Positions 15 to 21,774 of a DNA stretch of 64,000 nt are shown piece after piece. Location of the stretch: NCBI GenBank assembly GCA_016789955.1, contig JAEUPB010000094.1, positions 33,262-97,261 on the forward strand, read 5' to 3'. Origin of the DNA: Rubrivivax sp. (GTDB lineage: Bacteria > Pseudomonadota > Gammaproteobacteria > Burkholderiales > Burkholderiaceae_C). Under the pieces are notes generated by a model. The model saw only the letters and a list, made by a program, of their open reading frames with translations. It was not told the origin of the DNA and made no database searches. The position numbers and the translations under genes are program-made. Each line of letters starts with the position of its first letter. Positions within the stretch are counted from its first letter, which is position 1.

Positions 15-2654
15 ATGCGCGCGTGGGCCGGGGCGTGGCGGCGATGGCCGCTGGCCGTGGCACTGGGCGCGGTGCTGCTGGCGTCGCTGCTGCCGGCCCC
101 GCTGGCCGATGCGCAGCGCGTGTCCGACGTGCGCGGCACGCGCCACAACCTGTCCACCAGCGGGCCCGGCAGCACGCACGCGGCACCCAGCGGCGGCACC
201 AGCGAGGTCTGCGTGTTCTGCCACACGCCGCACAGCGCCACGCGGCAGGACGAGGGCGGCACGCCGCTGCGCTCGCCGCTGTGGAACCGGCGCGTGCCGG
301 CCGGCACCACGTACACGCCGTACACCTCGAGCACGCTGGACGCGCAGAGCATCGCCGACGGCTTCGCGGCCACGCCGGGCGGCAGCAGCAAGCTGTGCCT
401 GTCGTGCCACGACGGCACGCTGGCGCTGGGCAACGTCAACGTGCTCAACGGGCAGGCCAACGCAACCATTCCGATGACGGGCACCGGCCCCGGCGGCACG
501 ATGCCGCCCGGCCAGGGCGCCACCACCGGGTTCACGCGCTTCCTCGGCACCGACCTGCGCAACGACCACCCGATCTCGGTGAGCTACACCACCGCGCTCG
601 CGCAGCGCGACGGCGAACTGCGGGTGGTCGACGGCCAGCAGCGCTGGCCGCCGGGTTCCACCGGCAGCGCCAGCGTGATCGGCGTGCGCGCCAGCGGCTA
701 CAAGCCGCTGCTGCCGCTGGAGCCCACCGGCGCGGGGTCGCTGGGCCAGCTGCAGTGCGCCACCTGCCACGACCCGCACCTGCGCGAGCTCGACACCACC
801 CAGGGCAACCCGAAGTTCCTGCGTGCGTCTCGCTTCCAGGAGGTGGCGCCGACCGCCGCACCGAACCTCGACGGCGACATCCTCTGCCTGTCCTGCCACG
901 ACAAGAACGGCGGCTTCGGCATCTGGGCGCAGTCGGCGCACGCGCGCCCCGACGTGGCCGAGGAGACCTACCGCAGCACGTCCGCAGCGCTGCGCGAGTT
1001 CCCCGACGGGCTGCCGGTGTGGAAGGCCGCGTGCCTCAACTGCCACGACACCCACACCGCGCAGGGCGCGCGGCGGCTGACGCGCGAAGGCGTGGACGGT
1101 GCGCAGATCGGCGGCAGCCCGCTGGCTGCGCGCCAGGGCGGCGGCCCGGCGCTGGAGAACACCTGCTACCAGTGCCACACCAGCGCGGCGCGCTCGGCGC
1201 TGAACAGCGTGGTGCAGGTGCCCGACATCGAGTCGGCGTTCTCGCTGCGCATCCGCATGCCCATCACCACCGTGGAGCAGGGTGCCGCGGAGGAGCCGCA
1301 CGATCCATCGTCGTCGTTCTCCGAGCCGGCCATCGACTGCACCACCGCCACCAACCGCTGCGGTGCCGACGGCATCGAGCCCGCGACGAAGCTCGCGCAG
1401 CGCCACGCCGAGTGCACCGACTGCCACAACCCGCACCGCGTGATCCGCAACCGTCTGTTCAACGCCAACCCCGGCGTGCCCGACGCGAAGGGCACGCACC
1501 GCAACGATCCGACCTCGGGCTACACCGTCAGCAACCTCGCCAGCGGCGTGCTGCGCGGGGCCTGGGGCGTGGAGCCGGTGTACGGCTCGGCATCGTTCCA
1601 CGTCGACCCGGGCGCCTTCACCGTGAAGCGCGGCGACCCGGGCGCGAGCGTGGGCACCGCGGCGAGCCAGAGCTACGTGACGCGCGAGTACCAGATCTGC
1701 CTGAAGTGCCATAGCAACCACGCCTACGGCAACACCGCGCCGCTGCTGGGTCGGCCCGGCGGCACGTCCTCCGGCACCAACAACCTCACGCGCTACACCA
1801 ACCAGGCACGCGAACTGCAGCCACCGGCGGCGCATCGCGGCGGCGGCATCGGCGACGTGAAGAACCTCGGCAGCAACGGCGGCGCCGGCAGCAACTACAA
1901 CAGCGGCAACCACCGCTCGTGGCACCCGGTGATCGAGAGCACTGGCCGAGACATCGCGCGGCGCGGCATCACCGCCGGCAAGAACCCGTGGGTGCTGCCG
2001 TGGTCGAACAGCGGCTCGGTGGGTGCGCAGACGATGTATTGCAGCGACTGCCACGGCTCGCGCGCGACGACGCCCGGCTCGCTCGCACCCGACAGCGGCG
2101 TGGCCGGCCCGCACGGCTCGCAGAACGACTTCCTGCTCAAGGCGCCGTTCAACGCCAGCGACCCCAGCCTGTGCTTCAAGTGCCACGAGCGCGAGGTCTA
2201 CTCGCCCACCGGCGACAGCCGCAAGAGCGGCTTTTGGACCGGCTTCTGCTGCCGCGGCGGCCGCGGCGATGGCAACGACCAGCTGCACTGGTTCCACTGG
2301 AACAAGATCCTCTCGTCCGACCCCGGCCGCGTGCTGAAGTGCAACTGGTGCCACGCCGCCGTGCCGCACGGCTGGAAGAACAAGGCGCTGCTGGTCAACC
2401 TCAACGACGTCGGCGAGGAAGCGGGACTCGCCAGCGGCAACCGCGAATTCCGCAGCAGCGCGTCGGCGCATGCCTACAACCAGGAGCCCTACTACCTCAA
2501 TGCGAAGGTCAAGATCCGCACCTTCGCCACCAGCGGCAACTGGAGCGACGCCAACTGCGGCTCGGCCAACTCGCCCACGCAGTTCGGCACCAACACCAAC
2601 AGCAACCAGACCGGCAAGGACTGGATGAAGGACGTGTGCAGCAACCCGCCATGA
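15..2654 (+). CDS. exported 11-haem c-type cytochrome (doubled CXXCH type)
   Basis: Large periplasmic or cell-surface electron carrier of 879 residues. A basic N-terminus and hydrophobic stretch (residues 13-33, ending ADAQ) form a clear Sec signal peptide. Eleven CXXCH haem c motifs begin at about residues 66, 128, 248, 291, 340, 384, 467, 562, 676, 720 and 776. Several are followed by D/N/T-P-H, the pattern of doubled-CXXCH cytochromes. The long haem-poor stretch around 570-670 is rich in Gly/Asn. The stop codon overlaps the start of the ResB-like gene (ATGA), so it is translationally coupled to cytochrome maturation genes. The electron donor and acceptor cannot be told from sequence. Since only 14 bases precede it, the operon probably starts to the left. 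Multihaem identity is certain; the respiratory role is inferred. Confidence 0.93.
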   Translation: MRAWAGAWRRWPLAVALGAVLLASLLPAPLADAQRVSDVRGTRHNLSTSGPGSTHAAPSGGTSEVCVFCHTPHSATRQDEGGTPLRSPLWNRRVPAGTTYTPYTSSTLDAQSIADGFAATPGGSSKLCLSCHDGTLALGNVNVLNGQANATIPMTGTGPGGTMPPGQGATTGFTRFLGTDLRNDHPISVSYTTALAQRDGELRVVDGQQRWPPGSTGSASVIGVRASGYKPLLPLEPTGAGSLGQLQCATCHDPHLRELDTTQGNPKFLRASRFQEVAPTAAPNLDGDILCLSCHDKNGGFGIWAQSAHARPDVAEETYRSTSAALREFPDGLPVWKAACLNCHDTHTAQGARRLTREGVDGAQIGGSPLAARQGGGPALENTCYQCHTSAARSALNSVVQVPDIESAFSLRIRMPITTVEQGAAEEPHDPSSSFSEPAIDCTTATNRCGADGIEPATKLAQRHAECTDCHNPHRVIRNRLFNANPGVPDAKGTHRNDPTSGYTVSNLASGVLRGAWGVEPVYGSASFHVDPGAFTVKRGDPGASVGTAASQSYVTREYQICLKCHSNHAYGNTAPLLGRPGGTSSGTNNLTRYTNQARELQPPAAHRGGGIGDVKNLGSNGGAGSNYNSGNHRSWHPVIESTGRDIARRGITAGKNPWVLPWSNSGSVGAQTMYCSDCHGSRATTPGSLAPDSGVAGPHGSQNDFLLKAPFNASDPSLCFKCHEREVYSPTGDSRKSGFWTGFCCRGGRGDGNDQLHWFHWNKILSSDPGRVLKCNWCHAAVPHGWKNKALLVNLNDVGEEAGLASGNREFRSSASAHAYNQEPYYLNAKVKIRTFATSGNWSDANCGSANSPTQFGTNTNSNQTGKDWMKDVCSNPP

Positions 2655-3682
2655 ACGCCGACACGTCGATCGCCCGGGCGTCGGCCACGCGCGGCCCCGC
2701 GCTGCGCCGCATCGCGTGGCGCCTGGTGGCGCATGCCGGCTCCACCCGCACGCTGCTGGCGCTGCTGGCGCTGCTGGCGGCGGTGGTCTTCGCGCGGCCG
2801 GCCTGGGCGCCGCTGGCCGCGGTGCTTGGTCTGCTGGGAGCGTGCCTGGCGGCGGCGCTGGGGGTGCATCCGCGGCTGCGGCGGCAGCCGGCGCTGCTGG
2901 TGACGCATCTCGCGCTGGTCGCGCTGGTGGTGCTGGTCGGACTGGGCCGGCTGCTGGCGCTGGACGGCCGCTTCGAGCTGACGCAGGGCGTGGCCTTCGA
3001 CGGCCAACTGCTCGACGGCGAGCGCGGCGCCTGGCACCGCGAGCGGCTGCACGCGCTGCGCTTCCGGCATCACGGGTTCGAGGTCGACTACGCGGCCGGC
3101 CGCCGGCGCGGCGCCACGCGCAACGCCGTCGAGTGGCTCGACGACGAAGGCCGCACGCATGCCGCGGTGATCGGCGACCACCGGCCGCTGGTGATCGACG
3201 GGCACCGCATCTACACGAGCCCGAACAAGGGCTATGCGCCGCTGCTGCGATGGCTGCCCGAGGGCGGTGGCGAGCCGGTGGTGGGCGCGGTCCACCTGCC
3301 GAGCTACCCGGCGCAGGAGCTGCGCCAGTGGCGCGCGTGGACGCTGCCCGGCGCCGCCGAAGCATGGGTGCAGCTCGACCTCGACGGCGAGGAGCCGATC
3401 GCCCGCGACGCGCCTGCCGTGTTCCGCCTGCCGCAGCGTCCTCGCCTGGTGGTGCGCGTGGCCGGCGTGCGCGCCGTGCTGGCGCCGGGCGACGAGCTGG
3501 CGGTGCCCGGCGGGCGGCTGCGCTTCGAGGCGTTGACGACGTGGATGGGCTACCGCATCAGCCACGACCCGACGCTGCCGTGGCTGCTGGCCGTCGCGTT
3601 GCTGGCCTGCGCCGCGATGGCCTGGCACTGGGTGGCGGCCTGCCGCGACACGCTTGCGCGACCGGAGCGACACGATGGATGA
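2651..3682 (+). CDS. ResB-like cytochrome c biogenesis protein
   Basis: Protein of 343 residues, shorter than standard ResB/Ccs1. It has a pair of N-terminal membrane segments (about 35-55 and 60-100), a large periplasmic domain, and a C-terminal membrane segment (about 312-330) after the WMGYRISHDP stretch typical of ResB-like proteins. ResB works with CcsA in System II to deliver haem across the membrane and ligate it to apocytochromes. The ATG overlaps the stop of the 11-haem cytochrome and the C-terminus overlaps the CcsA-like start, so the three genes form one translational unit. The compact form resembles ResB-like proteins found beside multihaem cytochromes in other bacteria and may be a dedicated system for this cytochrome (inference). 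Confidence 0.8.
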   Translation: MNADTSIARASATRGPALRRIAWRLVAHAGSTRTLLALLALLAAVVFARPAWAPLAAVLGLLGACLAAALGVHPRLRRQPALLVTHLALVALVVLVGLGRLLALDGRFELTQGVAFDGQLLDGERGAWHRERLHALRFRHHGFEVDYAAGRRRGATRNAVEWLDDEGRTHAAVIGDHRPLVIDGHRIYTSPNKGYAPLLRWLPEGGGEPVVGAVHLPSYPAQELRQWRAWTLPGAAEAWVQLDLDGEEPIARDAPAVFRLPQRPRLVVRVAGVRAVLAPGDELAVPGGRLRFEALTTWMGYRISHDPTLPWLLAVALLACAAMAWHWVAACRDTLARPERHDG

Positions 3683-4436
3683 GGCGTTGCTGCTTCGGGG
3701 CGCCCTCGCGGGCTATGGCGCGGCCTTCGCGGGCGGGCGCTGGCCGCGCGCGGCCCAAGCGATGCTCGCCGCCGCAGTGGGGCTGCACACCGGCGCGCTG
3801 GCGCTGCGCTGGGCCGCCCATGGCCACGGGCCGTTCACCACGCTGCACGAGGTGCTGAGTTCCAACCTCTGGAGCCTGGCGCTGATCTTCCTGGCCGCCG
3901 CGGCGCGCTGGCCGGAGGTGCGTGCTGCGTGGCGCGCGGCGTGGCCGGTGCTGGCGCTGCTGGCCGCATGGTTGCTGGCCTCCGACGGCGGGCGCGGCCA
4001 CTTCCCGGCCACTTACGCCACCACGCTGCTGTACCTGCACGCGGTGGCCGGCAAGCTGTTCCTCGGGCTGTTGCTGGTGGCGGTGGCGCTGGCGCTGCTG
4101 CCGCTCGCGCGGAGCACGCCGGCGGCGATGGCGCAGCGCGCAGGTGCGCTGGCCTGGGCCTTCGCGGGCGCCGCGTTCGTCGCCGAGAGCCTGATGCTCG
4201 TGATCGGCGCGGCCTGGGCACAGGACGCCTGGGGCCGCTACTGGGCCTGGGATCCGCTGGAGACCTGGGCCTTCGCGACCTGGCTCGCGCTGGCCGCGGC
4301 GCTGCATGCGCGCCATGCGCAGGGGCCGGCCGCGAAGCGCCACGCGCTGTGGCTGGCGGGCGTGTTCGTGATCGCCTTCCTGACCTTCTTCGGCGTGCCG
4401 TTCCTGAGCGCCGCGCCGCACCAGGGGGCGCTGTGA
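3675..4436 (+). CDS. ccsA: CcsA/CcsB-family cytochrome c assembly protein
   Basis: Polytopic membrane protein of 253 residues with about seven or eight hydrophobic segments. The diagnostic tryptophan-rich WWD-type motif, WGRYWAWDPLETW, lies near residues 184-196. Conserved histidines occur in the HEVLSSNLW and LYLHAVAGK contexts. It is the haem-handling partner of ResB in System II cytochrome c synthesis. The ATG at 3675 overlaps the end of the ResB-like gene by 8 bases and was preferred over an upstream in-frame start that would lie deeper inside resB. The next gene begins at an overlapping GTGA. This is a strong family assignment. Specificity for the upstream multihaem cytochrome is inferred from the operon. 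Confidence 0.88.
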   Translation: MDEALLLRGALAGYGAAFAGGRWPRAAQAMLAAAVGLHTGALALRWAAHGHGPFTTLHEVLSSNLWSLALIFLAAAARWPEVRAAWRAAWPVLALLAAWLLASDGGRGHFPATYATTLLYLHAVAGKLFLGLLLVAVALALLPLARSTPAAMAQRAGALAWAFAGAAFVAESLMLVIGAAWAQDAWGRYWAWDPLETWAFATWLALAAALHARHAQGPAAKRHALWLAGVFVIAFLTFFGVPFLSAAPHQGAL

Positions 4437-5032
4437 GGCCCAGGCCCGCCGCTGCGATCGGGCCGGTGCCGCCGGTGCGCCGCCGTGCGCTCGCGCTGGG
4501 CACGCTGGCGCTGGTGCTGCTCGCCGCGGGCTCGCTGGACCGTCGCACGCGCGAGGCGCTGTCGCCGCCTGCGGAGCCGGCGGCCGCCGAGCGCCCGGCC
4601 ACGCGCGCCACGGCCCACGATGCCGAGGTGCGCCGCCGCTTCGACGCCGCGGTGGTGATGCTGCACGCGCGCCAGTACGAGCACGCCGCCACCGCGCTGC
4701 ACCGCGTGCTGGCGCTGGCCCCCGCGATGCCCGAGGCGCACGTGAACATGGGCTACGCGCTGCTGGGCCTGCAGCGGCCGAAGGCGGCGCGAGACTTCTT
4801 CGACAGCGCGATCGCGCTGGACCCCGCACAGGCCAATGCGTACCACGGCCTGGCGCTGGCCTGGGAAGCGATGGGCGACCTCGCGATGGCCACCGGCGCG
4901 ATGCGCAGCTACCTGCACCTGGCGCGCCACGAGCGGCCGGAGCACCTGCGCCGCGCGCGCGCCGCGCTGTGGGAGTGGGAGACGGCTCGGGAGTCGGCCG
5001 CTGCCGCGGGCGCGGCCTCGGCGCCGCGCTGA
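4433..5032 (+). CDS. membrane-anchored TPR-repeat protein
   Basis: Protein of 199 residues starting at GTG 4433, which overlaps the ccsA stop. One N-terminal membrane segment (about residues 20-35) is followed by a helical region with at least two TPR units. In these, YEHAATALHRVLALAP, HVNMGYALLGL and YHGLALAWEAMGDL show the TPR spacing of small and large residues. The domain probably faces the periplasm. TPR proteins in cytochrome maturation clusters usually hold apocytochromes, as in CcmH/NrfG-type proteins. Position directly before ccmI supports that role, though no catalytic motif is present. The Ala-rich tail is unremarkable. Function is inferred from context. Confidence 0.72.
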   Translation: MRPRPAAAIGPVPPVRRRALALGTLALVLLAAGSLDRRTREALSPPAEPAAAERPATRATAHDAEVRRRFDAAVVMLHARQYEHAATALHRVLALAPAMPEAHVNMGYALLGLQRPKAARDFFDSAIALDPAQANAYHGLALAWEAMGDLAMATGAMRSYLHLARHERPEHLRRARAALWEWETARESAAAAGAASAPR

Positions 5033-5066
5033 CGTTCGCCGCACGCTCGCCGGCCCGCCGAGAAGC

Positions 5067-5082
5067 TGGCCGGCGTCTTGCA
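5067..5082 (+). promoter_or_regulatory. candidate sigma-54 (-24/-12) promoter upstream of ccmI
   Basis: The sequence TGGCCGGCGTCTTGCA has GG and GC exactly ten bases apart and matches the sigma-54 consensus TGGCACGNNNNTTGCA at all but two defined positions. It lies about 100 bases before the ccmI start, in the only sizeable gap of this operon. A sigma-54 activator is encoded 4 kb downstream. Confidence 0.55.
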
Positions 5083-5130
5083 ACGTGCGGGGCATGCGCC
5101 GCGCAGCACCCGCGTCACCCCGGCTGGACG

Positions 5131-5146
5131 TTCCCGTTTCCGGGAA
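5131..5146 (+). other. short perfect hairpin in the ccmI leader
   Basis: TTCCCG and CGGGAA form a 6-bp inverted repeat around a TTTC loop. It lies downstream of the candidate sigma-54 promoter and 37 bases before the ccmI ATG. It could be a leader hairpin or an operator, and nothing further can be said from sequence. Confidence 0.35.
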
Positions 5147-5182
5147 TCGCTTCCTGCGCGCGGGGATTGCCGGAGTGCCGAG

Positions 5183-6460
5183 ATGACGGTGTTCTGGCTC
5201 GTCGTCGCGATGTTCATCGCCGGTGCGCTGCTGTTCGTGCTGCCGCCGCTGCTCAGCCCGCCGGTGCCGGCGCCGCACGCGGCCGGCGACGTGAACCGTG
5301 CCGTGCTGGGTGACCAGCGGCGCGAGGCCCGTGCCGACGCCGAGGCCGGCCTGCTCGATGCTGCCGGGCTCGCGCGGCTCGACCGCGAGACGCTGCGCCG
5401 CGAGGCCGAGGACGCCGCCGGCCCGGCGGTGGCCTTGCAGCCGGCCCCTGCGCGGCGAACCGCGTTTGCGGTGGCGCTGCTGCTGCCGGCGGGCGTGGTG
5501 GCGCTGTACCTGCATCTGGGCCGCCCGCATTCGGTCGAGCCGCGTCTGCGCGCGGCGGAGGCCATCGGACCCGGCGCGCGGCCGTCGGCGGCCGATCGCC
5601 ACGAGATCGGGTCCGGCGAGCTGGAGCAGCGCGTGGCGGCCCTCGTCGAGCGGCTGAAGGCCGATCCGTCGCAGCTGGACGGCTGGGTCATGCTCGGCCG
5701 CTCGTACACCGCGCTGGGCCGCTGGCGCGACGCGATATCGGCGTTCCGCCGCGCGGTGGAACTGCAGCCGCGCGACGCCTCGCTGCTGGCCGACCTCGCC
5801 GACCTGATCGGCATGGCGCAAGGCAAGCGCCTGGCGGGCGAGCCTGCTCGCTACGTGCAGGCCGCGCTCGACGTCGACCCGCGCCACCCGAAGGCGCTGG
5901 CGCTGGCCGGCAGCATCGCGTTCGAGGCGCGCGACTACGCGCAGGCCCGCGGCCACTGGCAGCGGCTGCTCGACGTGCTGCCGGCCGACTCGCCGATGGC
6001 CCGCTCGGTGCGCGGCAGCCTGCAGCAGGTGGCACTGCTCGAGGCTGGCGAGGCGGCGGGCTCGGCGCCCGGAGCGTCCGCCGCCGCTGCCGTGGCCCCG
6101 GCGCGCATCGAAGGCCAGGTCGAGCTGGGCCCGGAGCTGGCCGCCCGCGTCGCGGCGGGCGACACGCTGTACGTCAGCGCTCGGTCGGCCACCGGGCCAC
6201 GCATGCCGCGCGCGGTGCAGCGCCGCACGCTCGACGCCGTGGCGCCGGCGCGCTGGTCGTTCGTGCTCGACGACGGCTCGGCGATCACGCCGCAGCTGCG
6301 GTTGTCGGGGGCCGAGTCGGTGGTCGTCAGCGCGCGCATCAGCCGCAGCGGCAGCGCCACGCCGGCGCCCGGCGACCTGGTCGGCGAGAGCGCACCGCTG
6401 TCGCCGCGCGGTGCGGCGGCGCGCGGCCTGGTGCTGCGCGTCGATCGCGTGCAGCCCTGA
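5183..6460 (+). CDS. ccmI: CcmI-like c-type cytochrome biogenesis chaperone
   Basis: Protein of 425 residues with the full CcmI architecture. There is an N-terminal membrane segment (about 3-24), a cytoplasmic loop with the NRAVLGDQRREA and DRETLRREAEDA leucine-zipper-like pattern, and a second membrane segment (about 94-112). Periplasmic TPR repeats (about 145-260) and a C-terminal CcmI domain follow, containing GDTLYVSARSATGPRMP and LDDGSAITPQLRLS. CcmI normally receives apocytochrome C-termini for the System I ligase CcmFH. Here it sits beside System II genes, an unusual pairing. ATG 5183 was chosen because it starts the first membrane helix; the upstream in-frame extension has no start support. 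Family assignment is strong and the partner is inferred. Confidence 0.85.
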   Translation: MTVFWLVVAMFIAGALLFVLPPLLSPPVPAPHAAGDVNRAVLGDQRREARADAEAGLLDAAGLARLDRETLRREAEDAAGPAVALQPAPARRTAFAVALLLPAGVVALYLHLGRPHSVEPRLRAAEAIGPGARPSAADRHEIGSGELEQRVAALVERLKADPSQLDGWVMLGRSYTALGRWRDAISAFRRAVELQPRDASLLADLADLIGMAQGKRLAGEPARYVQAALDVDPRHPKALALAGSIAFEARDYAQARGHWQRLLDVLPADSPMARSVRGSLQQVALLEAGEAAGSAPGASAAAAVAPARIEGQVELGPELAARVAAGDTLYVSARSATGPRMPRAVQRRTLDAVAPARWSFVLDDGSAITPQLRLSGAESVVVSARISRSGSATPAPGDLVGESAPLSPRGAAARGLVLRVDRVQP

Positions 6461-6533
6461 CGCGGCCCCCGCACCGAGGTGTTGCCCGTGGATCCGCGCC
6501 CCGTCGACAATCCCGCCGTTGCGCCTGCTCACG

Positions 6534-7148
6534 ATGGTCTCGATGCGTCACCGATTGCTCTCCCTCCACGCCGCCGTGCTGTTGTCGCTCGGCGGTATCG
6601 CGCAGGCCCCGGCGCGGGCCCAGGCGCCGGCCGACGAGGCCCCGCGCGCCGCGCTCGAGGAAGCGCGCAAGGCCAGCGGCGAGCTGGTGGCCGGCGTGCG
6701 TGGCGAACTGCTGAAGGCCATCGAGGCCAGCGGCCCGCTGCGCGCGATCGTCGTGTGCAAGTACAGCGTGCCCGAGATCGCGTCATCGATCTCGCGGCGC
6801 TACGGCGCGCGCGTCACGCGCGTCAGCCTCACGCCGCGCAATCCGGCGCTGGGCTGGGGCGACGCCTGGGAGCAACGCGTGCTGATGCAGTTCGACGAGC
6901 GCGTGGCCCGCGGCGAGAAGGCCGAGGGCATGGAGCACCACGAGGTGGTGTCCGAGCCCAGCGGGCGCTTCCTGCGCTACATGCGCGTGCTGCCGATGCA
7001 GCCGGCGTGCATGCACTGCCACGGCCCCGCGGAGCAGATCAGCGAGCCGATCCGGCAGCAGCTCGCACACGAGTACCCGCACGACCGCGCGGTGGGGCTG
7101 GCGGTGGGCAAGGTGCGCGGCGCGGTGACCTACAAGAAGCCGCTGTAG
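6534..7148 (+). CDS. periplasmic c-haem DUF3365 (Tll0287-like) protein
   Basis: Protein of about 204 residues. A signal peptide, hydrophobic from about residue 8 to 25 and ending near ARAQA, is followed by a Tll0287-like/DUF3365 domain. That domain ends with a single haem c motif, CMHCHG. Such domains occur alone or as the sensor part of kinases and bind one c-type haem, making this a candidate redox or gas sensor or a small electron carrier. It lies 73 bases after ccmI and just before the two-component genes. Starts at 6534 and 6543 (MRHRLL) are both possible; neither has a clear ribosome site. Haem binding is strongly indicated by the motif, the sensing role is inference. Confidence 0.78.
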   Translation: MVSMRHRLLSLHAAVLLSLGGIAQAPARAQAPADEAPRAALEEARKASGELVAGVRGELLKAIEASGPLRAIVVCKYSVPEIASSISRRYGARVTRVSLTPRNPALGWGDAWEQRVLMQFDERVARGEKAEGMEHHEVVSEPSGRFLRYMRVLPMQPACMHCHGPAEQISEPIRQQLAHEYPHDRAVGLAVGKVRGAVTYKKPL

Positions 7149-7171
7149 CGCGCGGCGGCCCGGCGCTGCCT

Positions 7172-7720
7172 TCAGCGCCCTTGCTGTTCCAGCCAGCGCC
7201 GCGCGTCCGCGTGGCCTTGCGCGCCGGCACGCGCGATCCACTTGTGCGCCTCCTCGGGCGAAGGCTGCACGCCGCTGCCGGTCAGGAACAGGATGCCCAG
7301 GCTGTACTGCGCCTCGGCGTGCCCTTGCCGCGCGGCCTCGAAGTACCACTGCGCGGCCAGCCGCTGCGCGTCCTGCCCGGCCGGCACCTCGCTGAGCCCG
7401 TAGGCATGCAGGTTGGCGAGGTGGAACTGCGCCTCGGCATGGCCTTGCCGCGCCGCGCGCTCGAACCAGCGCAGCGCCATCGCGTCGCTCTCGCGCACGC
7501 CGTGGCCGTGGTAGTACAGCAGCCCCAGGCGCGTCTGCGCGATCGCGTGTCCCGCGGCTGCCAGCGGCTCCAGCAGCCGCACGGCGGTGGGGTAGTCCTT
7601 GCGCAGCATCGCGGCGTGCGCCTCGTCGAGGCGGTCGGCGCCGGCCGGCGCGGCCTGCAGCGTGCCGGCTGCGGACAATAGGGCGATGGTGATGGCGGCG
7701 GCGAGCGGACGGGCGTGCAT
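7172..7720 (-). CDS. exported Sel1-repeat protein
   Basis: Protein of 182 residues with a signal peptide (hydrophobic about 6-22, ending LQAAPA). Four Sel1-like repeats follow, including AIAQTRLGLLYYHGHGV, AEAQFHLANLHAYG and AEAQYSLGILFLTGSGV. Each repeat has the A-Q/L-G-Y/G pattern of two antiparallel helices. Sel1 proteins act as protein-interaction scaffolds and are often linked to signalling. It is transcribed toward the DUF3365 gene and divergently from the sensor kinase at 7781, with 60 bases between the starts. A second Sel1 protein is encoded at 10778. No catalytic residues are visible. Confidence 0.78.
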   Translation of the reverse strand: MHARPLAAAITIALLSAAGTLQAAPAGADRLDEAHAAMLRKDYPTAVRLLEPLAAAGHAIAQTRLGLLYYHGHGVRESDAMALRWFERAARQGHAEAQFHLANLHAYGLSEVPAGQDAQRLAAQWYFEAARQGHAEAQYSLGILFLTGSGVQPSPEEAHKWIARAGAQGHADARRWLEQQGR

Positions 7721-7780
7721 CGGGGGTCTCCGGGGCTGGCCCGCCGTGCATGCAAGCGCCGTTCCCGCGGCCGGGGCGGC

Positions 7781-9205
7781 ATGAGCACCGCGGCACCCCC
7801 GCTGCTGGCCGTGCGCCGCAGCCTGCGCGCGCAGGGGCTGGCGGCCATGCTGGCGCTGCTCGTGTACCTGCTGGCCGCCGGCGGCTACATCGCATGGGAG
7901 CGCGGGGAGGTCTACCAGGACGTGACCGAGCTGTCGCTGCTGGCCCGCCACGAGAAGGCCGTGGCGCTGGCCGAGGAGGCGATCAACGGCGCGCTGGTGG
8001 ACGTCACCGAGAGCAGCAGCGCCGAGGTGGCCACGCCGGCGCCGCCCACCGAGCTGCGGCTGTACATGGAGAACTGCAGCCGGCTGCTCGCCGCGCTGGA
8101 GTCGTTCGACCCGTCGTACGCGCGGCTGGCGCGGGCCATCGGCCGCAGCTACGACGTGCTGGTGGTGCAGCCGGTGCGCGCCAACTGGATCGACATGCGC
8201 GAGTCGCTCAAGCGCGCCGCCGATGACCTGGAGATCCAGCGCCGGCGGCTGACCGGCGAGCGCGAGGAGCTGATGCGCGGCTGGCAACGCCGCTACGACG
8301 CGGTGACGGTGGACTCGCTGCTGCTGGCCGGCGTGGGGCTGGTCTCGTTCGGCGCGCTGGTGGCGTGGTACTTCACGCGTCTGTCGCGCGACATCCGGCG
8401 GCTGGAGACGCACGCGCGCCACGTGGTGCAGGGCCGCCGCGGCGTCGCGCTGGACGTGCAGCGGGACGACGAGCTGGGCTCGCTGATGCGTGCCGTCAAC
8501 CGCATGTCGGCCGACCTCGACGACCGCGAGCAGCAGATCCGCCTCGACGACGAGCGCCGGCTGCACGGCGAGAAGCTGCTCGCCGTGGGGGCGCTGGCGG
8601 CCGGCGTGGCGCACGAGGTGAACAACCCGCTGGCGGTGATCGGCGGCGTGGCGCAGGAGCTGCGCACGAACCCCGACGCGCAGGTGGTCCAGGCCGCCGA
8701 GCAGATCCTCGCGCAGACCCAGCGTGCCGGGCAGGCCGCGCGCCAGCTCGCCGAGGTGGCCGAGCCGCAGACGGCCGATCTCGACTGGGTTGACCTCAAC
8801 GCGCTGACGCAGCGCGTGGTGCAGCTCGTCGGCTACGACAAGCGCTACCGCCGCATCGCCTTCGAGCTGCGCCCCGATCCCCAGCTGCCCGCGGTGCGGA
8901 GTTCGGCCGGCGCGATCCAGCAGCTGCTCATGCGCCTGCTGCCGATGGTGGCCGATGCGCTGGCGCGCGATGCGTCACGGCCGCAGGCCGTGCGCATCGA
9001 GACCGCGGCTGCCGGTGGAGAGGTGCAGTGGCAGATGGAGTTCGCCGCCACGCTGGACTTCGCGCAGCCCGACGTGCAGCGGGGGCTGCTGTTGTCGCGC
9101 GCGATCATCGAGCCGCTGCAGGGTCGACTTGCGCTGGGTCAAGTGGAAGGCCAGCACCAGCGCATACAACTCACGCTGCCCGCCGGGGGTGCCGGTAGCG
9201 ATTGA
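7781..9205 (+). CDS. sensor histidine kinase homologue with degenerate ATPase domain
   Basis: Protein of 474 residues. Membrane segments at about 20-40 and 183-205 flank a periplasmic sensor region. A HAMP segment (about 205-258) and a HisKA helix with HEVNNPLAVIGG follow, the phospho-accepting histidine being near residue 278. The C-terminal part aligns with the start of a HATPase_c domain (VDLNALTQRVVQL, RIAFELRPDPQLP). However, the N-box asparagines are replaced (IQQLLMRLLPMVADAL), and no DxGxG or GxGLGL glycine boxes are present. It may therefore be phosphorylated by another kinase, or serve as a pseudokinase. The stop lies 7 bases before the response-regulator gene. Identification as a kinase homologue is strong; loss of ATP binding is inferred from missing motifs. 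Confidence 0.85.
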   Translation: MSTAAPPLLAVRRSLRAQGLAAMLALLVYLLAAGGYIAWERGEVYQDVTELSLLARHEKAVALAEEAINGALVDVTESSSAEVATPAPPTELRLYMENCSRLLAALESFDPSYARLARAIGRSYDVLVVQPVRANWIDMRESLKRAADDLEIQRRRLTGEREELMRGWQRRYDAVTVDSLLLAGVGLVSFGALVAWYFTRLSRDIRRLETHARHVVQGRRGVALDVQRDDELGSLMRAVNRMSADLDDREQQIRLDDERRLHGEKLLAVGALAAGVAHEVNNPLAVIGGVAQELRTNPDAQVVQAAEQILAQTQRAGQAARQLAEVAEPQTADLDWVDLNALTQRVVQLVGYDKRYRRIAFELRPDPQLPAVRSSAGAIQQLLMRLLPMVADALARDASRPQAVRIETAAAGGEVQWQMEFAATLDFAQPDVQRGLLLSRAIIEPLQGRLALGQVEGQHQRIQLTLPAGGAGSD

Positions 9206-9212
9206 GGTTTCG

Positions 9213-10577
<1,365 letters not shown>

Positions 10578-10578
10578 T

Positions 10579-10720: not shown

Positions 10721-10727
10721 GCGCCAT

Positions 10728-10743
10728 TGGCACGCTTCTCGCT
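10728..10743 (+). promoter_or_regulatory. strong sigma-54 (-24/-12) promoter match for the sel1-cytochrome-propeller operon
   Basis: TGGCACGCTTCTCGCT matches the consensus TGGCACGNNNNTTGCW at every defined position but one, with the invariant GG-N10-GC spacing. Transcription would start near 10755, about 23 bases before the ATG at 10778. The sigma-54 activator gene ends only 150 bases upstream. Confidence 0.7.
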
Positions 10744-10777
10744 GCTCGTTGACCATCGATGGGCAACGAGGGCGGCG

Positions 10778-11428
10778 ATGCGGAGCGCGGGACGCAGGAC
10801 GTTGGCGATGGTCTTCACGGCACTGGCTCTGGGCGCCTCATCGGTGGCTTTCGCGACACCCGACGAGGACTACCAGCGCGGCCTGACGGCCTATCACCGC
10901 GGCGACGTCAGCACCGCGATCGGTGCCCTGCGGCCGGCGGCGGCCGCGGGGCACGCGCCGTCGCAGGCGCTGCTGGCCTTCGTCTACGAGCGTGCCGGCG
11001 AGGTCGATCGGGCCGTGCCGCTGTACCGCGACGCCGCGGCGCAGGGCCTGCCCGACGCGCAGGTGCGCTGGGCCGAGATGCTGCTGGCCGGGCAGGGCGT
11101 TGCCAAAGATGAGAAGGCCGCGTTCGAGCAATTCTCGAAAGCGGCAGCGCAGGGCCATCGCCATGCGGTCGAGGTCGTCGCCACCGCGTGGCTGAAGGGC
11201 CAGTGGGGCGCCGACGAGCGCGCCGAGCCGGCGGCGGCGCGCGCCGCCGTGCAGCGCGCGGCCGACGGCGGCCACCTGCCTTCGGCCGAGGCGCTGGCGG
11301 CGGCCTACCGCAGCGGCCGCTTCGGCGTCGACCTTGATCCAGCGCAAGCCTCGCGCTGGGACACGCAAGTGAGTGCCTGGCGAAGGCAACGCGCGCCCGC
11401 TGCTTCGGCACCCACGCGGACCCGATGA
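10778..11428 (+). CDS. exported Sel1-repeat protein, first gene of a predicted sigma-54 operon
   Basis: Protein of 216 residues. A signal peptide (MRSAGRRTLAMVFTALALG, ending near AFATP) is followed by Sel1-type helical repeats, such as APSQALLAFVYERAGEV, PDAQVRWAEMLLAGQGV and RHAVEVVATAWLKG. Residues near the end are basic and low-complexity. ATG 10778 was chosen over an in-frame ATG at 10727 because it begins a proper signal peptide and lies downstream of the predicted transcription start. Its stop overlaps the start of the cytochrome gene (ATGA). A Sel1 protein also flanks the other side of the two-component pair. It is likely a periplasmic scaffold; the function is unknown. Confidence 0.75.
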   Translation: MRSAGRRTLAMVFTALALGASSVAFATPDEDYQRGLTAYHRGDVSTAIGALRPAAAAGHAPSQALLAFVYERAGEVDRAVPLYRDAAAQGLPDAQVRWAEMLLAGQGVAKDEKAAFEQFSKAAAQGHRHAVEVVATAWLKGQWGADERAEPAAARAAVQRAADGGHLPSAEALAAAYRSGRFGVDLDPAQASRWDTQVSAWRRQRAPAASAPTRTR

Positions 11429-11757
11429 CCACACCACGACGCAGACTCATCGCCAGGGCGCCGGCCTCGGCCGGCATGCTGGCCGCCGCTGTCTTCGCCG
11501 CCGCGCCTGCGCACGCCGCCGACGTGCAGCGCGGGGCCGAGCTGTACCGGCTGCACTGCACGTCGTGCCACGGCGCCGGTGGCCGCCCGGTGCTGCCGGG
11601 CGCGCCCGACTTCACGCAGCCGATCGCGCTGCTCAAGCCCGACCTGCGACTGCTCGATGCGCTGAAGGCCGGCCGTGGCGCGATGCCCGCGTATGCCGGT
11701 CTGCTGCGCGATGCCGAGCTGCTCGACCTGGTCGCCCACCTGAGGACGTTGCGATGA
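11425..11757 (+). CDS. small periplasmic mono-haem cytochrome c (class I)
   Basis: Protein of 110 residues. The signal peptide ends at AHAA (about residue 32), and a compact class I cytochrome c fold follows. It has one haem motif, CTSCHG, near residue 47. A distal methionine candidate lies in GRGAMPAYAGLL, and a C-terminal helix LLDLVAHLRTL follows. Such proteins shuttle single electrons in the periplasm. It overlaps the Sel1 gene upstream and the propeller gene downstream by four bases on each side, so it is fully embedded in the operon. It may relay electrons to or from the 11-haem cytochrome, which is inference. Confidence 0.88.
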   Translation: MTTPRRRLIARAPASAGMLAAAVFAAAPAHAADVQRGAELYRLHCTSCHGAGGRPVLPGAPDFTQPIALLKPDLRLLDALKAGRGAMPAYAGLLRDAELLDLVAHLRTLR

Positions 11758-12806
11758 GCGGGCCGGGGTCGCGCGTGTTGGGCGCTGCACTGCTCGCAGT
11801 GCTGCTGGCAGTGCAGCCGGCCGAGGCGCAGCGCGTGAAGGAGCAGTTCGAGGTCGGCCCTGCGGTGTACGTGCGCGCGCTCACCGTGGAGCCTGCGCGC
11901 GACGCACTGTGGGTGGGCACCTCGGCCGGCGTGCACGAGGTCGGCCTTTCGGCCGGCAAGCTGCGCAACACGTTCACGCGCAAGGAAGGCCTGGCCAACG
12001 AGTACGTGTTCGCGGTGGGCGTGGACCGCCAGGGCCACAAGTGGTTCGGCACCAACGCCGGCGGCGTCTCGCGCTACCGCGACGGGCAGTGGAAGACCTA
12101 CTTCCCGATGCACGGCCTGGCCGACTACTGGATCTACGCCTTCGCGCAGCAGAAGAGCGGCGACTTCTGGATCGGCACCTGGGCCGGCGTGAACCGCGTC
12201 GACGCCAAGACCGGCCGCTTCAGCACCTACGTGAAGGAACTCGTCAACGAGTGGGTCTACGGCATCGCCGTCGACGCGCAGGACCGCGTCTGGTTCGGCA
12301 CCGAGGGCGGCGTGTCGATGCACGACGGCCGTCGGTGGGTCTCGTGGACGCACAAGAACGGCCTGGGCGCGCCCAACGACGAGCAGCTGCCGATCTCCAC
12401 CAACACCGGCCTGGGCACGCGCTCGCGGCACGACCTCTCGGTGGGCGGCGAGGGGCCGGCCACCTACAACCCGAACTACGTGTTCGCGATGCTGGCCGCG
12501 CGCGACGGCGGCATCTGGGCCGGCACCTGGGGCGGCGGCGTCTCGCGCTGGGACGGCCAGCGCTGGACGAACCTGAGCCGCAAGGACGGGCTGCCCGGGA
12601 ACATCGTGTACAGCCTCGCGCAGGACACCGAGGGCCATGTGTGGATGGGCACCAACCACGGTGTCGCGCGCTGGGACGGCAAGGCCTTCAAGACCTGGGG
12701 CAAGGCCGATGGCCTGCTCGATGAGCATGTCTACGCGGTGGCCGCGGCGCCGGGCGGCGACGTGTGGGTGGGCACCAAAAGGGGCGTGGTGCGCATCGGC
12801 CGCTGA
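11754..12806 (+). CDS. exported two-component-regulator propeller (Reg_prop) protein, copy 1
   Basis: Protein of 350 residues with a signal peptide ending near AEAQ. The rest is built of Reg_prop blades of about 40-50 residues, each carrying W-V/F-G-T with G-V/L-S-R/V-W, for example ALWVGTSAGVHEV, HKWFGTNAGGVSRYRDG and GIWAGTWGGGVSRWDG. Blades of this kind usually form the periplasmic sensor half of hybrid kinases, but here no membrane or kinase domain follows. The next gene is a paralogue with the same YNPNY landmark and blade order. It starts inside the stop of the cytochrome gene. It could be a soluble ligand or redox sensor feeding the hybrid kinase encoded two genes later (inference). 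Confidence 0.82.
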   Translation: MSGPGSRVLGAALLAVLLAVQPAEAQRVKEQFEVGPAVYVRALTVEPARDALWVGTSAGVHEVGLSAGKLRNTFTRKEGLANEYVFAVGVDRQGHKWFGTNAGGVSRYRDGQWKTYFPMHGLADYWIYAFAQQKSGDFWIGTWAGVNRVDAKTGRFSTYVKELVNEWVYGIAVDAQDRVWFGTEGGVSMHDGRRWVSWTHKNGLGAPNDEQLPISTNTGLGTRSRHDLSVGGEGPATYNPNYVFAMLAARDGGIWAGTWGGGVSRWDGQRWTNLSRKDGLPGNIVYSLAQDTEGHVWMGTNHGVARWDGKAFKTWGKADGLLDEHVYAVAAAPGGDVWVGTKRGVVRIGR

Positions 12807-12843
12807 GGCCGGGGCACCGACGGATGCGAAGGGACGGCGAGCG

Positions 12844-14070
12844 ATGCGGTGGAGTCTTCCGATGACGGGCCTGGCGGTGATCGCGCTGGGCGCGGTGCTG
12901 GCCGGCACCTACCAGCTCGGCCGCAGCAATGCGGCCGCAGCGGGCGCGGCGCTGTCGCCGCACGGCACGCCGATGGTGGCGCAGGCCGACCCGGCCGCCG
13001 GCGCCACGCCGGCCGGAGCGCGCGCCGGCAAGGTCGGTGCCGAGGGGGCCGACACGGGCCAGACCTTCACCCACTTCCGCGTCGGCAACAAGAACGTCAA
13101 GCGCATCCACGTCGACGGCGATGTGGTGTGGGTCGGCACCTCGGGTGGCGTGGTGCGGTACGACACGCGGGGCGACGACTACAAGCTCTACGACACCAAG
13201 AGCGGGCTGCTGTCCAACGGCGTGTTCTACGTCGGCAAGCTCGACGGCAAGCTCGCGGTGGGCACCTACGGCGGTGGCCTGTCGCTGCTCGACGGCGACC
13301 GCTGGCAGACCTACAACATCCCCGACGGCCTCGGCGACGCCTTCGTCTACGACGTGCTGAAGGCGAAGAACGGCGATGTGTGGATCGCCACCTGGTCGGG
13401 CGTGAACCGCGTGCGCGGTGGCGACCTGAAGGACCGCTCGAAGTGGGAGCTGCACACCGTGGAATCGTCCAAGGGCGGGCTGCCGAACGACTGGGTCTAC
13501 GGCCTGGCCGAAGGGCGCGACGGCGACATCTGGCTGGGCACCGAAGGGGGCCTGGCGCTGTACCGCGGCGGCCAGTGGCAGAACTGGAACCACGCCAAGG
13601 GGCTGGGCGCGCCCTACGAGGCGGTGAAGGACGCGATCCAGTACCAGAACGACCCGGCCAAGGTCAGCGAGCACCACTCGCGGCAGAAGCAGGAGATGGG
13701 GTTGTCGAAGGTCGACGTGGCCTACAACCCGAACTACATCGTATCGCTGGCGGTGGATGCCGAAGGCGTCGTGTGGGCCGGCACCTGGGGCGGCGGGCTG
13801 TCGCGCTTCGACGGCCGGAAGTGGACGCAGTACACCACGCACGAGGGCCTGCCGGGCAACCACGTCTTCATGCTGCACGTGGACCCGCGCGGACAGCTCT
13901 GGGCTGGCACCAACAACGGCCTGGCGAAGATGAAGCCCGGCGGCGGCTTCGAGGTGATGACGGTCAACGACGGCCTGTTCAGCAACGTCGTGTTCTCGAT
14001 GGCCACCGCGCGCGACGGCACGCGCTGGATCGGCAGCTTCGGCGGCGTGGCACGGCTGCGGCCGTCCTGA
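12844..14070 (+). CDS. exported or anchored Reg_prop propeller protein, copy 2
   Basis: Protein of 408 residues. An N-terminal hydrophobic segment (about 5-23) without an obvious cleavage site suggests a membrane anchor. An Ala/Gly-rich linker to about residue 75 is followed by Reg_prop blades (VVWVGTSGGVVRY, DIWLGTEGGLALY, VVWAGTWGGGLSRFDG, LWAGTNNGLAKM). It is clearly paralogous to the preceding gene, sharing YNPNY, WAGTWGGG and GLPGN in register. It also has a unique stretch near 265-290 rich in charged residues. No kinase domain is present. It lies 37 bases after copy 1 and 39 bases before the hybrid kinase, suggesting a sensory relay through protein contact. Confidence 0.82.
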   Translation: MRWSLPMTGLAVIALGAVLAGTYQLGRSNAAAAGAALSPHGTPMVAQADPAAGATPAGARAGKVGAEGADTGQTFTHFRVGNKNVKRIHVDGDVVWVGTSGGVVRYDTRGDDYKLYDTKSGLLSNGVFYVGKLDGKLAVGTYGGGLSLLDGDRWQTYNIPDGLGDAFVYDVLKAKNGDVWIATWSGVNRVRGGDLKDRSKWELHTVESSKGGLPNDWVYGLAEGRDGDIWLGTEGGLALYRGGQWQNWNHAKGLGAPYEAVKDAIQYQNDPAKVSEHHSRQKQEMGLSKVDVAYNPNYIVSLAVDAEGVVWAGTWGGGLSRFDGRKWTQYTTHEGLPGNHVFMLHVDPRGQLWAGTNNGLAKMKPGGGFEVMTVNDGLFSNVVFSMATARDGTRWIGSFGGVARLRPS

Positions 14071-14109
14071 CGGCGCCCGCACCACCCGCCCGCACTGGCC
14101 ATCCGCGCC

Positions 14110-16857
<2,748 letters not shown>

Positions 16858-16881
16858 CGCCCGCGAGTCCTCGTGCAGCCG

Positions 16882-17907
16882 ATGCCCCGCCCACCCTTCG
16901 GCGCCGCACTGGCCCTGCGCCGTCGCGCGTTGCTGGCGGCCGGGGCTGGCGCCATCGTGCTGCCGCTGCGTGCGCACGCGGCCGTGCAGCGGGTGCAGGC
17001 GTACCTTTTCGGCGGCCCGGTGGAGCTGCTGCTGCCGGCGCGCGTGCCGGCCGCGGTGGTGGCGCCGGTGCTGCGCGGCCTGGCCGCGATCAACCGCCGC
17101 TGGAACGCGTGGAAGCCGGGTGAACTGCGAAGCCTGAACGACGCCCTGCGAGCCGGCCGCACGGTGCGCGCGGCGCCCGACCTGGTGGCGCTGCTGCGCC
17201 GTGCGGCGACGTTCGAGACGGCATCGGCCGGCGCCTACAACGCGGCCCTCGGCGGGGCCGTCGGCGCATGGGGCTTCCACGCCGACCGCCTCCTCGAAGG
17301 CCCTGCGCCCGCGGCGGCCACGGTGCAGGCGTGGCAGCGCGCGCGCCCCTCGCTGGCACAACTCGAGATCCACGGCGACATGCTGCGCAGCACTTCGCCG
17401 GCAGTGCAGATCGACCTCGGGGGCTGCGCCAAGGGTGCCGCCGCCGACTGGGCGCTGGAGCAGCTCGCCGCGGCCGGCGTGCACGACGCGCTGGTGAACC
17501 TGGGTGGCAACCTCGCGGCCCGTGGCGGTGCCGGCGGCCGGCCGTGGCAGGTGGGCCTGCGTGACCCGTTTGGGCCCGGGCTGGCGGCCCGCATCGAGAC
17601 CGATGGCGCCGAGGCCGTGGTGACCTCGGGCGTCTACGAGCGCTGGCGCGTGGCCGACGGGCAACGGGTCGTGCACGTGCTGGACCCGGCCTCCGCCAGG
17701 CCGCTGCAGCCGGGGCTGGCGAGCGTGACCGTCCTGCACCGCGATGCCACGCTGGCCGACGCCGCCGCCACCGCGCTGCTGGTGGCGGGGCCGCAGGCCT
17801 GGATGGAGCGGGCGCGCCGGCTGGGGGCGGCGCAGGCGGCGGTGATTGATCACGCAGGCCGGCTGCAGGCCACGCCGGCGCTGGCAGCGCGGCTGCAGCC
17901 GGCCTGA
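16882..17907 (+). CDS. apbE: FAD:protein FMN transferase (ApbE)
   Basis: Protein of 341 residues. The N-terminus RRRALLAAGAGAIVLPL is a twin-arginine or Sec-like export signal. The ApbE motifs appear in order: SAGAYNAALGGAVGAWGFH, QIDLGGCAKG, DALVNLGGNLAARG, VVTSGVYERW and LADAAATALLV. ApbE attaches FMN to threonine residues of redox proteins in the periplasm (Rnf/Nqr subunits, NosR, FMN-binding domains of extracellular electron transfer systems). No FMN-binding-domain target is encoded in this window. It begins 24 bases after the hybrid kinase and closes the redox island. GTG 16873 is an alternative start; ATG 16882 was preferred. Confidence 0.88.
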   Translation: MPRPPFGAALALRRRALLAAGAGAIVLPLRAHAAVQRVQAYLFGGPVELLLPARVPAAVVAPVLRGLAAINRRWNAWKPGELRSLNDALRAGRTVRAAPDLVALLRRAATFETASAGAYNAALGGAVGAWGFHADRLLEGPAPAAATVQAWQRARPSLAQLEIHGDMLRSTSPAVQIDLGGCAKGAAADWALEQLAAAGVHDALVNLGGNLAARGGAGGRPWQVGLRDPFGPGLAARIETDGAEAVVTSGVYERWRVADGQRVVHVLDPASARPLQPGLASVTVLHRDATLADAAATALLVAGPQAWMERARRLGAAQAAVIDHAGRLQATPALAARLQPA

Positions 17908-17997
17908 CGCCGCGAGGCCCGTCGCGCGCCGTGGCCTCGGTCACGGCGCGGCGCCGCGGGGGGGTGCAGAGTCGGCAGCGCAGGCCGATAGCCGGCC

Positions 17998-18394: not shown

Positions 18395-18430
18395 GACCGA
18401 GGTACGGTCTCGCAGCCGCCCCCGGCGGGT

Positions 18431-21735: not shown

Positions 21736-21774
21736 CACGGAGAGGTGGATGAGGCCGGGTGGGTGCCGAACAAA

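What the first reader, a model, noticed from the sequence alone, without database searches (positions are those of the whole stretch)
15..17907. Candidate sigma-54-controlled redox island built around an 11-haem cytochrome
One contiguous block holds an 11-haem cytochrome, its own maturation genes, a haem sensor-like protein, a degenerate kinase with a sigma-54 activator, a mono-haem cytochrome, two exported propellers, a full hybrid phosphorelay kinase and ApbE. I do not recognise this combination as a described pathway. Seen: genes, overlaps and promoter matches. Known: multihaem cytochromes and ApbE-flavinylated proteins occur in respiratory and extracellular electron transfer. Inferred: all parts form one inducible system.
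Basis: partly seen in the sequence, partly recalled or inferred. Interest (0 to 1): 0.82.

Follow-up and report, generated by a model that had tools for sequence, protein, structure and literature searches.

The report
Right half of a Uet electron-transfer locus
This is one half of a known but little-studied bacterial gene cluster thought to pass electrons across the outer membrane; two of its cytochromes resemble the subunit of a Geobacter protein nanowire, and its control genes look rewired in this bacterial family.

Summary
The reading "not a described pathway" is not. The window begins inside a larger cluster. The host contig (a Rubrivivax-like Sphaerotilaceae MAG) continues 33 kb leftward with a tetrahaem cytochrome, PPIase, outer-membrane beta-barrel, trihaem cytochromes and NHL proteins. 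That is the published Uet (undecahaem electron transfer) system; the 11-haem protein is UetJ (11 CXXCH in 79 of 80 homologues). Gene order is kept in Beta- and Gammaproteobacteria; ResB and CcsA follow uetJ in 54 and 52 of 57 loci. The kinase/NtrC/mono-haem/propeller block is a frequent extension (NtrC in 25 of 57). Possibly new: (1) UetA and the N-terminal part of UetJ match OmcE, the Geobacter nanowire subunit, and share its eight histidines; (2) conserved -24/-12 sites precede uetA and the Sel1b-cytochrome-propeller operon; (3) in the Sphaerotilaceae clade the NtrC-partner kinase lost its ATPase domain, and an Hpt hybrid kinase follows the propellers in all 11 members examined (of 13). Function, polymerisation and electron direction are inferred. 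ApbE is an optional neighbour (7 of 11) with no flavinylation target found. No rpoN was detected in this 79.6%-complete genome.

The parts
15..2654 (+). uetJ, undecahaem cytochrome (879 aa): OmcE-like tetrahaem N-terminal part (about residues 1-297) plus a seven-haem extension
   Evidence: 11 CXXCH; phmmer to OmcE 7tfs E=5.8e-24 over residues 16-255; 46-sequence profile E=1.1e-32; 11 CXXCH in 79 of 80 homologues. The fourth haem of the module (CXXCH 291) is placed by alignment with UetA, not by the phmmer match.
2651..3682 (+). short ResB-like protein
   Evidence: PF05140 E=8.2e-9; follows uetJ in 54 of 57 loci; only ResB match in the host genome
3675..4436 (+). CcsA-like haem lyase subunit
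   Evidence: PF01578 E=1.1e-15; 52 of 57 loci
4433..5032 (+). TPR protein (GTG start)
   Evidence: TPR hits; 46 of 57 loci
5183..6460 (+). CcmI/CycH-like protein
   Evidence: PF23892 and PF23914; 26 of 57 loci
6534..7148 (+). Tll0287-like protein with one CXXCH
   Evidence: PF11845 E=9.5e-22; 18 of 57 loci
7172..7849 (-). Sel1-repeat protein, divergent from and overlapping the kinase gene
   Evidence: PF08238; 17 of 57 loci
7781..9205 (+). membrane sensor kinase with HAMP and HisKA, catalytic ATPase domain degenerate (H-box HEVNNPL kept)
   Evidence: No HATPase_c hit; N, G1 and G2 boxes not found; HATPase_c present in five orthologues of other lineages
9213..10577 (+). NtrC-type sigma-54 activator (REC-AAA+-Fis), GAFTSA loop
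   Evidence: PF00158, PF00072, PF02954; loop variants over 28 sequences
10728..10743 (+). -24/-12 site TGGCACGCTTCTCGCT before the Sel1b operon
   Evidence: score 21; site of score 20 or more at this place in 10 of 20 relatives, control 1.3%
10778..11428 (+). Sel1/TPR-type protein (Sel1b)
   Evidence: Weak Sel1/TPR hits, the best Sel1 score (26.6) below its cut-off of 30.7; 20 of 57 loci
11425..11757 (+). mono-haem cytochrome c
   Evidence: PF13442; 16 of 57 loci
11754..12806 (+). Reg_prop propeller 1
   Evidence: PF07494 E=2.8e-28; 15 of 57 loci
12844..14070 (+). Reg_prop propeller 2
   Evidence: PF07494 E=3.7e-24; 11 of 57 loci
14110..16857 (+). hybrid phosphorelay kinase PAS-PAS-HisKA-HATPase-REC-REC-Hpt
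   Evidence: Pfam; catalytic motifs intact; directly after propeller 2 in all 11 Sphaerotilaceae-clade members examined (and own)
16873..17907 (+). ApbE FMN transferase, optional neighbour
   Evidence: PF02424 E=1e-58; follows the hybrid kinase in 7 of those 11 (and own)
17998..18393 (+). small protein of unknown family
   Evidence: no Pfam hit; homologue after ApbE or the hybrid kinase in G017, L116 and six of the eight stretches

Best explanation
The finding is the right half of a Uet (undecahaem electron transfer) locus: an outer-membrane electron conduit with its cytochrome maturation genes and its own sigma-54 control. Shown: gene content, order and conservation; OmcE homology of UetA and UetJ; conserved sigma-54-type sites; decay of the NtrC-partner kinase beside an intact Hpt hybrid kinase. 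Inferred: electrons pass between an extracellular donor or acceptor and the periplasm through OmcE-like UetA and UetJ, the UetC barrel with trihaem cytochromes, and soluble c-type cytochromes. The short ResB-CcsA pair would help load these haem-rich proteins. A redox or envelope signal would reach NtrC, in this clade through the hybrid kinase instead of the ATPase-less sensor, and NtrC with sigma-54 would switch on uetA onward and the mono-haem/propeller operon. Direction (uptake or discharge) is unresolved; uptake is favoured mildly because Uet was described in a cathode-oxidising order and this genome carries RuBisCO.
For: Left half with UetA-, UetB-, UetC-, trihaem- and NHL-like genes; component list of Uet in PMC10734462 (passage). 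Barrel: 28 long strands in the model of the L025 orthologue, mean pLDDT 85.9; MtrB 6r2q_B is the third Foldseek hit. UetA to OmcE 7tfs E=3.7e-21, UetJ 5.8e-24, UetJ profile 1.1e-32; eight histidines shared. Order conserved. Sites of score 20 or more before uetA in 8 of 15 loci (control 0.7%) and before Sel1b in 10 of 20 (1.3%), against 0 of 77 before uetJ (2.1%), 1 of 27 before NtrC, 0 of 15 and 0 of 11 before the propellers. G017 keeps the divergent pair and both other sites. Kinase decay and hybrid kinase. RuBisCO in own genome.
Against: No expression, protein or electrochemical data. No Sigma54_DBD match in the host genome (genome 79.6% complete). GAFTSA in place of GAFTGA in this NtrC. Weak sigma-54-like sites are not enriched overall. 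Sites of score 20 or more are also above control before uetD, 14 of 57 against 1.8%, and slightly before CcsA, 7 of 65 against 2.8%, which the model does not explain. The tie to RuBisCO is weak: 11 of 14 UetJ genomes against 162 of 385 others (Fisher p=0.011), but 8 of 14 against 141 of 385 (p=0.16) at E<=1e-100, uncorrected for kinship. UetJ gave a poor structure model. Undecahaem cytochromes are also reported from a manganese reducer (passage), so discharge is as open as uptake.
Confidence: 0.75

Rival explanations
1. Only the Uet core with ResB-CcsA is one system. The Tll0287, kinase, NtrC, propeller, hybrid kinase and ApbE genes are a separate signalling neighbourhood that happens to travel beside it.
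For: G035 has the core, ResB, CcsA, TPR, CcmF and CcmI on its contig but not the rest. NtrC is seen in 25 and propellers in 15 and 11 of 57 loci. ApbE is missing in 4 of 11 clade members examined.
Against: The same block sits at the same side of uetJ in Gammaproteobacteria (L058, L061, L074) and in a Rhodospirillales-labelled MAG (L095). The same kind of -24/-12 site precedes uetA and the Sel1b operon.
Confidence: 0.2
2. The locus discharges electrons (Fe or Mn reduction) and does not take them up.
For: Undecahaem cytochromes are reported from the manganese-reducing Dechloromonas occultata (passage); OmcE is tied to Fe(III) oxide reduction (passage).
Against: Uet was described in cathode-oxidising Tenderiales (passages); RuBisCO in the host.
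Confidence: 0.35
3. The degenerate sensor kinase still signals: it works as a phosphatase or phosphotransfer protein for NtrC and the hybrid kinase has another target.
For: The H-box with its E-x-x-N pattern is kept (HEVNNPL or HEINNPL in own and 12 clade loci); the link of that pattern to phosphatase activity is recalled. In Ramlibacter L063 an intact kinase coexists with a hybrid kinase.
Against: In all 11 clade members examined the decayed kinase and the hybrid kinase lie in one locus.
Confidence: 0.35

Closest known systems
Uet (undecahaem electron transfer) complex, uetABCDEFGHIJ, of Tenderiales, Gallionella and Leptothrix
   Same: Tetrahaem, PPIase, beta-barrel, trihaem cytochromes, NHL proteins and undecahaem cytochrome, in one cluster
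   Different: Here ResB-CcsA-TPR, CcmF/CcmI, Tll0287, NtrC control, mono-haem cytochrome, propellers and ApbE are described around it. The founding paper was not held, so whether it lists them is not known to me. PMC10734462 does not mention ResB, CcsA, sigma, two-component, propeller or ApbE.
OmcE cytochrome nanowire of Geobacter sulfurreducens (PDB 7tfs); also PDB 9yuq, 'putative multiheme cytochrome c'
   Same: UetA and UetJ residues 16-255 match in sequence; eight histidines shared
   Different: UetJ carries seven further haems; polymerisation of UetA or UetJ is not shown
MtrCAB/MtoAB porin-cytochrome conduit
   Same: Beta-barrel plus multihaem cytochromes; MtrB among the top Foldseek hits of UetC
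   Different: Foldseek TM-score only 0.37; no decahaem MtrA-like protein among the cluster's CXXCH proteins (haem counts); trihaem proteins instead
PCC3 porin-cytochrome clusters
   Same: Large porin with multihaem cytochromes in iron oxidisers (passages)
   Different: PCC3 has a periplasmic cytochrome of about 21 haems; the largest here has 11

Membership tests
Uet system | undecahaem cytochrome UetJ | tested here: met
   11 CXXCH; 79 of 80 homologues
Uet system | tetrahaem UetA, PPIase UetB, beta-barrel UetC | tested here: met
   4 CXXCH at C92:22990-23877, rotamase domains, barrel model of the L025 orthologue
Uet system | trihaem cytochromes UetD/E/G and NHL proteins UetH/I | tested here: met
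   the assignment of single letters D to I is mine
Uet system | sequence homology to the named Uet proteins of Candidatus Tenderia | not tested
   Reference proteins were not fetched and the founding paper is not held; identification rests on the component list in PMC10734462
OmcE-type nanowire | OmcE-like tetrahaem sequence with its histidine set | tested here: met
   UetA E=3.7e-21; UetJ E=5.8e-24; shared histidines
OmcE-type nanowire | polymerises outside the cell with a haem ligand supplied by the next subunit | not testable with these tools
   The feature is stated in PMC12307469 (passage); the UetJ model was too poor to use
sigma-54 regulon | -24/-12 promoters at conserved places and an NtrC-type activator in the locus | tested here: met
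sigma-54 regulon | sigma-54 (rpoN) in the genome | tested here: inconclusive
   Not found; genome 79.6% complete
ApbE flavinylation system | an FMN_bind target protein | tested here: not met
   No PF04205 match in the genome (79.6% complete); no [ST]GA[ST]..[ST] motif in the 32 cluster proteins scanned
PCC3 | periplasmic cytochrome of about 21 haems | tested here: not met
   Largest cytochrome of the cluster has 11 CXXCH

The most novel reading that the evidence does not exclude
Uet is an OmcE-family nanowire machine of Beta- and Gammaproteobacteria. UetA polymerises like OmcE. UetJ, an OmcE module fused to seven more haems, is the cap or anchor that joins the filament to the UetC conduit by the same inter-subunit contact. 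In two lineages an Hpt hybrid kinase joined the sigma-54 circuit of this machine; in the Sphaerotilaceae and in Ramlibacter albus the original kinase then lost its ATPase domain.
Probability: 0.3. Interest if true: 0.8.

Novelty: new variant of a known kind. Interest (0 to 1): 0.55.

Why it matters
If UetA is an OmcE-type filament subunit, cytochrome nanowires would extend to a widespread conduit of Beta- and Gammaproteobacteria that include culturable hosts (Sphaerotilus mobilis, Piscinibacter defluvii, Ramlibacter albus), and the open question of how a nanowire is anchored would become testable through UetJ. The conserved sigma-54 sites give the first concrete regulatory hypothesis for Uet that I found in the held library. 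The kinase series (intact; intact plus hybrid kinase; decayed plus hybrid kinase) is a readable example of two-component rewiring. If none of this holds, the finding is still a well-supported annotation of a block that first looked unrecognised.

Tried and rejected
Rejected: a novel stand-alone redox island (the left half shows a known conduit); PCC3 (haem numbers); ApbE as a core part (7 of 11 clade members); an FMN_bind target in the genome (none). Led nowhere: a search for DUF2231; the UetJ structure model (mean pLDDT 52.7; no fold search was run with it); PDB entry 9yuq in papers (none); photosynthetic reaction centre in the own genome (none); a paper search on degenerate histidine kinases gave only plant papers. 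Searches for GAFTSA found 53 papers with either loop spelling, the ten listed all with GAFTGA only.

Limits of counts. The 80 loci are the best of 463 related stretches, so close relatives are over-represented. Left and right counts use 60 and 57 of the 80, those with at least 9 kb of flank; matches covering under 35% of the query were dropped. In 13 of 80 loci the label order has an inversion, mostly where paralogous trihaem, NHL or UetA/UetJ labels swap. The uetA figure is lowered because many left flanks end inside uetA. For the hybrid kinase, two of the 13 clade members (L022, L026) were not examined. Of the 14 other genomes searched the place of the best hit was checked only for L049 and L063. 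L042 has two kinase hits and only one row was examined. My count of RuBisCO matches weaker than 1e-100 (24 of 173) was made by eye.
Full report
What is there. The 11-haem protein begins at window base 15 and has eleven CXXCH motifs.

Context. The window is G000:C92:33262-97261 of a 5.26-Mb MAG, 79.6% complete. C92 position equals window position plus 33261. To the left: CcmF (17263-19245, minus), a three-haem (19295-20410, minus) and a two-haem cytochrome (about 20430-21203, minus), a mono-haem cytochrome (21332-21643), an NHL protein (21654-22763), a four-haem cytochrome (22990-23877), a PPIase (23900-25021), a barrel-like protein (25125-27005), a trihaem (27027-27410), a four-haem protein of mono plus trihaem type (27407-28408), two proteins here called helical by eye (28417-29307, 29304-30164; the second was scanned and has no Pfam hit), two trihaem proteins (30172-30795, 30792-31163) and two NHL-type proteins (31157-about 32131, 32125-33255). 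With the window genes the block holds 36 CXXCH motifs. The NHL call of the last two rests on resemblance and tblastn labels; only the first NHL protein was scanned by Pfam.

Identity. PMC10734462 (passages only) lists the Uet complex: undecahaem UetJ, tetrahaem UetA, trihaem UetDEG, PPIase UetB, NHL UetHI, barrel UetC. This fits the block. PMC12575090 and PMC13386937 (passages) name the cluster uetABCDEFGHIJ in Tenderiales and UetJ with its porin in Leptothrix. The founding paper (10.1128/msphere.00223-22) was not held, so nothing of it was seen.

Distribution. A scan of named genomes with three UetJ sequences found 463 related stretches; the best 80 were kept. They are mainly Beta- and Gammaproteobacteria, with one Rhodospirillales-labelled MAG (L095) and one Desulfuromonas-labelled fragment (L094). 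In the order, 14 of 399 genomes carry UetJ; among 41 genomes, mostly of the genus, 4 had a match, one of them only in fragments. So it is patchy.

Neighbourhood. Left of uetJ, among 60 loci with enough flank: last NHL 57, UetD-type trihaem 53, mono plus trihaem 53, second trihaem 52, PPIase 51, third trihaem 51, helical B 49, barrel 43, UetA 36. Right of it, among 57: ResB 54, CcsA 52, TPR 46, CcmI 26, NtrC 25, kinase 23, Sel1b 20, Tll0287 18, CcmF 17, Sel1a 17, mono-haem cytochrome 16, propellers 15 and 11. G017, of the same genus, is collinear through ApbE and the small protein; G035, of another family, has the core with ResB-CcsA-TPR, CcmF and CcmI but not the signalling part on its contig. 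The host's only ResB match is the one here, while CcmE lies elsewhere, so the pair looks like a dedicated addition to a System I host (inference).

Nanowire link. UetA matches OmcE (7tfs) at E=3.7e-21 and 9yuq at 7.4e-21. UetJ residues 16-255 match 7tfs at 5.8e-24; a profile of 46 UetJ finds only 7tfs (1.1e-32) and 9yuq (4.2e-23) at E<=0.01. Alignment of UetA and UetJ N-termini (22 rows) shows the same four CXXCH and four other histidines (TxHNL, TPH, NDHP, DPH). In 46 UetJ sequences all eleven CXXCH histidines and fourteen others are invariant, enough for bis-histidine ligation of all eleven haems. OmcE uses one ligand from the neighbouring subunit (passages). That UetA polymerises, or that UetJ caps it, is inference. 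No paper in the held library was found with both OmcE and UetJ; one review holds OmcE and a uetA-type name once each. A held review states that OmcE homologues occur across bacteria (passage), so the relation may be known elsewhere.

Conduit. The barrel of the L025 orthologue (43% identical) was modelled with 37 sequences: mean pLDDT 85.9, 28 long strands by my count of the listed elements. Foldseek finds outer-membrane barrels; MtrB (6r2q_B) is third by E-value with the highest query TM-score of the fifty rows listed, but only 0.37. Fold class is supported, a specific tie to MtrB is not.

Sigma-54. The two best-scoring sites of the contig form a divergent pair (C92 21248 minus, 21264 plus) between the two-haem and mono-haem genes; others stand at 22894, before uetA, and at window 10728, before Sel1b. 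A fifth of similar score lies elsewhere (82799). G017 keeps all these places (scores 21.5, 21.5, 21.5 and 21.0). Over relatives, best sites of score 20 or more: uetA 8 of 15 (control 0.7%), Sel1b 10 of 20 (1.3%), uetD 14 of 57 (1.8%), CcsA 7 of 65 (2.8%), uetJ 0 of 77 (2.1%), ResB 2 of 73 (2.3%), NtrC 1 of 27 (0.9%), propellers 0 of 15 and 0 of 11. Weights were my own from the recalled consensus. Against: overall counts are at chance, no rpoN was found, and NtrC has GAFTSA, as do 11 of 27 relatives; 13 have GAFTGA, two GSFTGA, one GAFTDA.

Kinase rewiring. Of 24 loci with the kinase, N, G1 and G2 boxes are not found in 14 (plus own); nine have all three and L095 has two. Pfam agrees in ten checked: HATPase_c absent in L021, L024, L028, L054, L049 and present in L034, L046, L069, L079, L095. 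On a UetJ tree own and twelve of the decayed loci form one clade with 100/100 support; L042 and L049 lie outside, so at least two changes are needed. In that clade the hybrid kinase follows propeller 2 in all 11 members examined: own, G017, L025, and L020, L021, L024, L028, L029, L030, L051, L054. Ramlibacter albus (L049, decayed) has a different Hpt-type hybrid kinase convergent to the propellers, with a CBS-type gene between, and Ramlibacter sp. L063 (intact kinase) has its homologue at the same place (62% over the main piece). This suggests that the hybrid kinase came first and decay followed; it is a reading from two species.

Physiology. RuBisCO is present in the own genome, no photosynthetic reaction centre was found. 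The association of UetJ with RuBisCO in the order is p=0.011 with all matches and p=0.16 with strong ones, uncorrected for kinship.

Verdict. A new variant of a known kind: the Uet conduit with a dedicated maturation pair and a frequent sigma-54 signalling extension.

Noticed in passing
window 7781-7849: The Sel1 gene (minus) and the kinase gene (plus) overlap at their 5' ends by 69 bases if the annotated starts are right; the divergent pair recurs in relatives.
   Followed up: partly
upstream of uetD in relatives: Sigma-54-like sites of score 20 or more are above control before uetD too (14 of 57 against 1.8%), suggesting an inner promoter; unexplained.
   Followed up: no
whole host genome: No Sigma54_DBD match in a genome with an NtrC-type activator; probably a gap of the 79.6%-complete MAG.
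   Followed up: no
G069:C97:6497-11641, L038, L057, L096; G169 and FK3.bin53 (L072, L078): Tandem or duplicate uetJ-like genes in one genome.
   Followed up: no
C92:28417-30164: Two neighbouring proteins of the Uet block that look helical by eye; the second has no Pfam hit. Homologues recur in Uet loci; function unknown.
   Followed up: no
L115:about 12700-13956: In Ramlibacter albus a CBS-type gene lies between the propellers and the hybrid kinase (domain name by eye).
   Followed up: no
window 19399-20025 and 20527-21738, both minus: NnrU and MFS genes beyond the finding; not seen in the G017 stretch compared.
   Followed up: no
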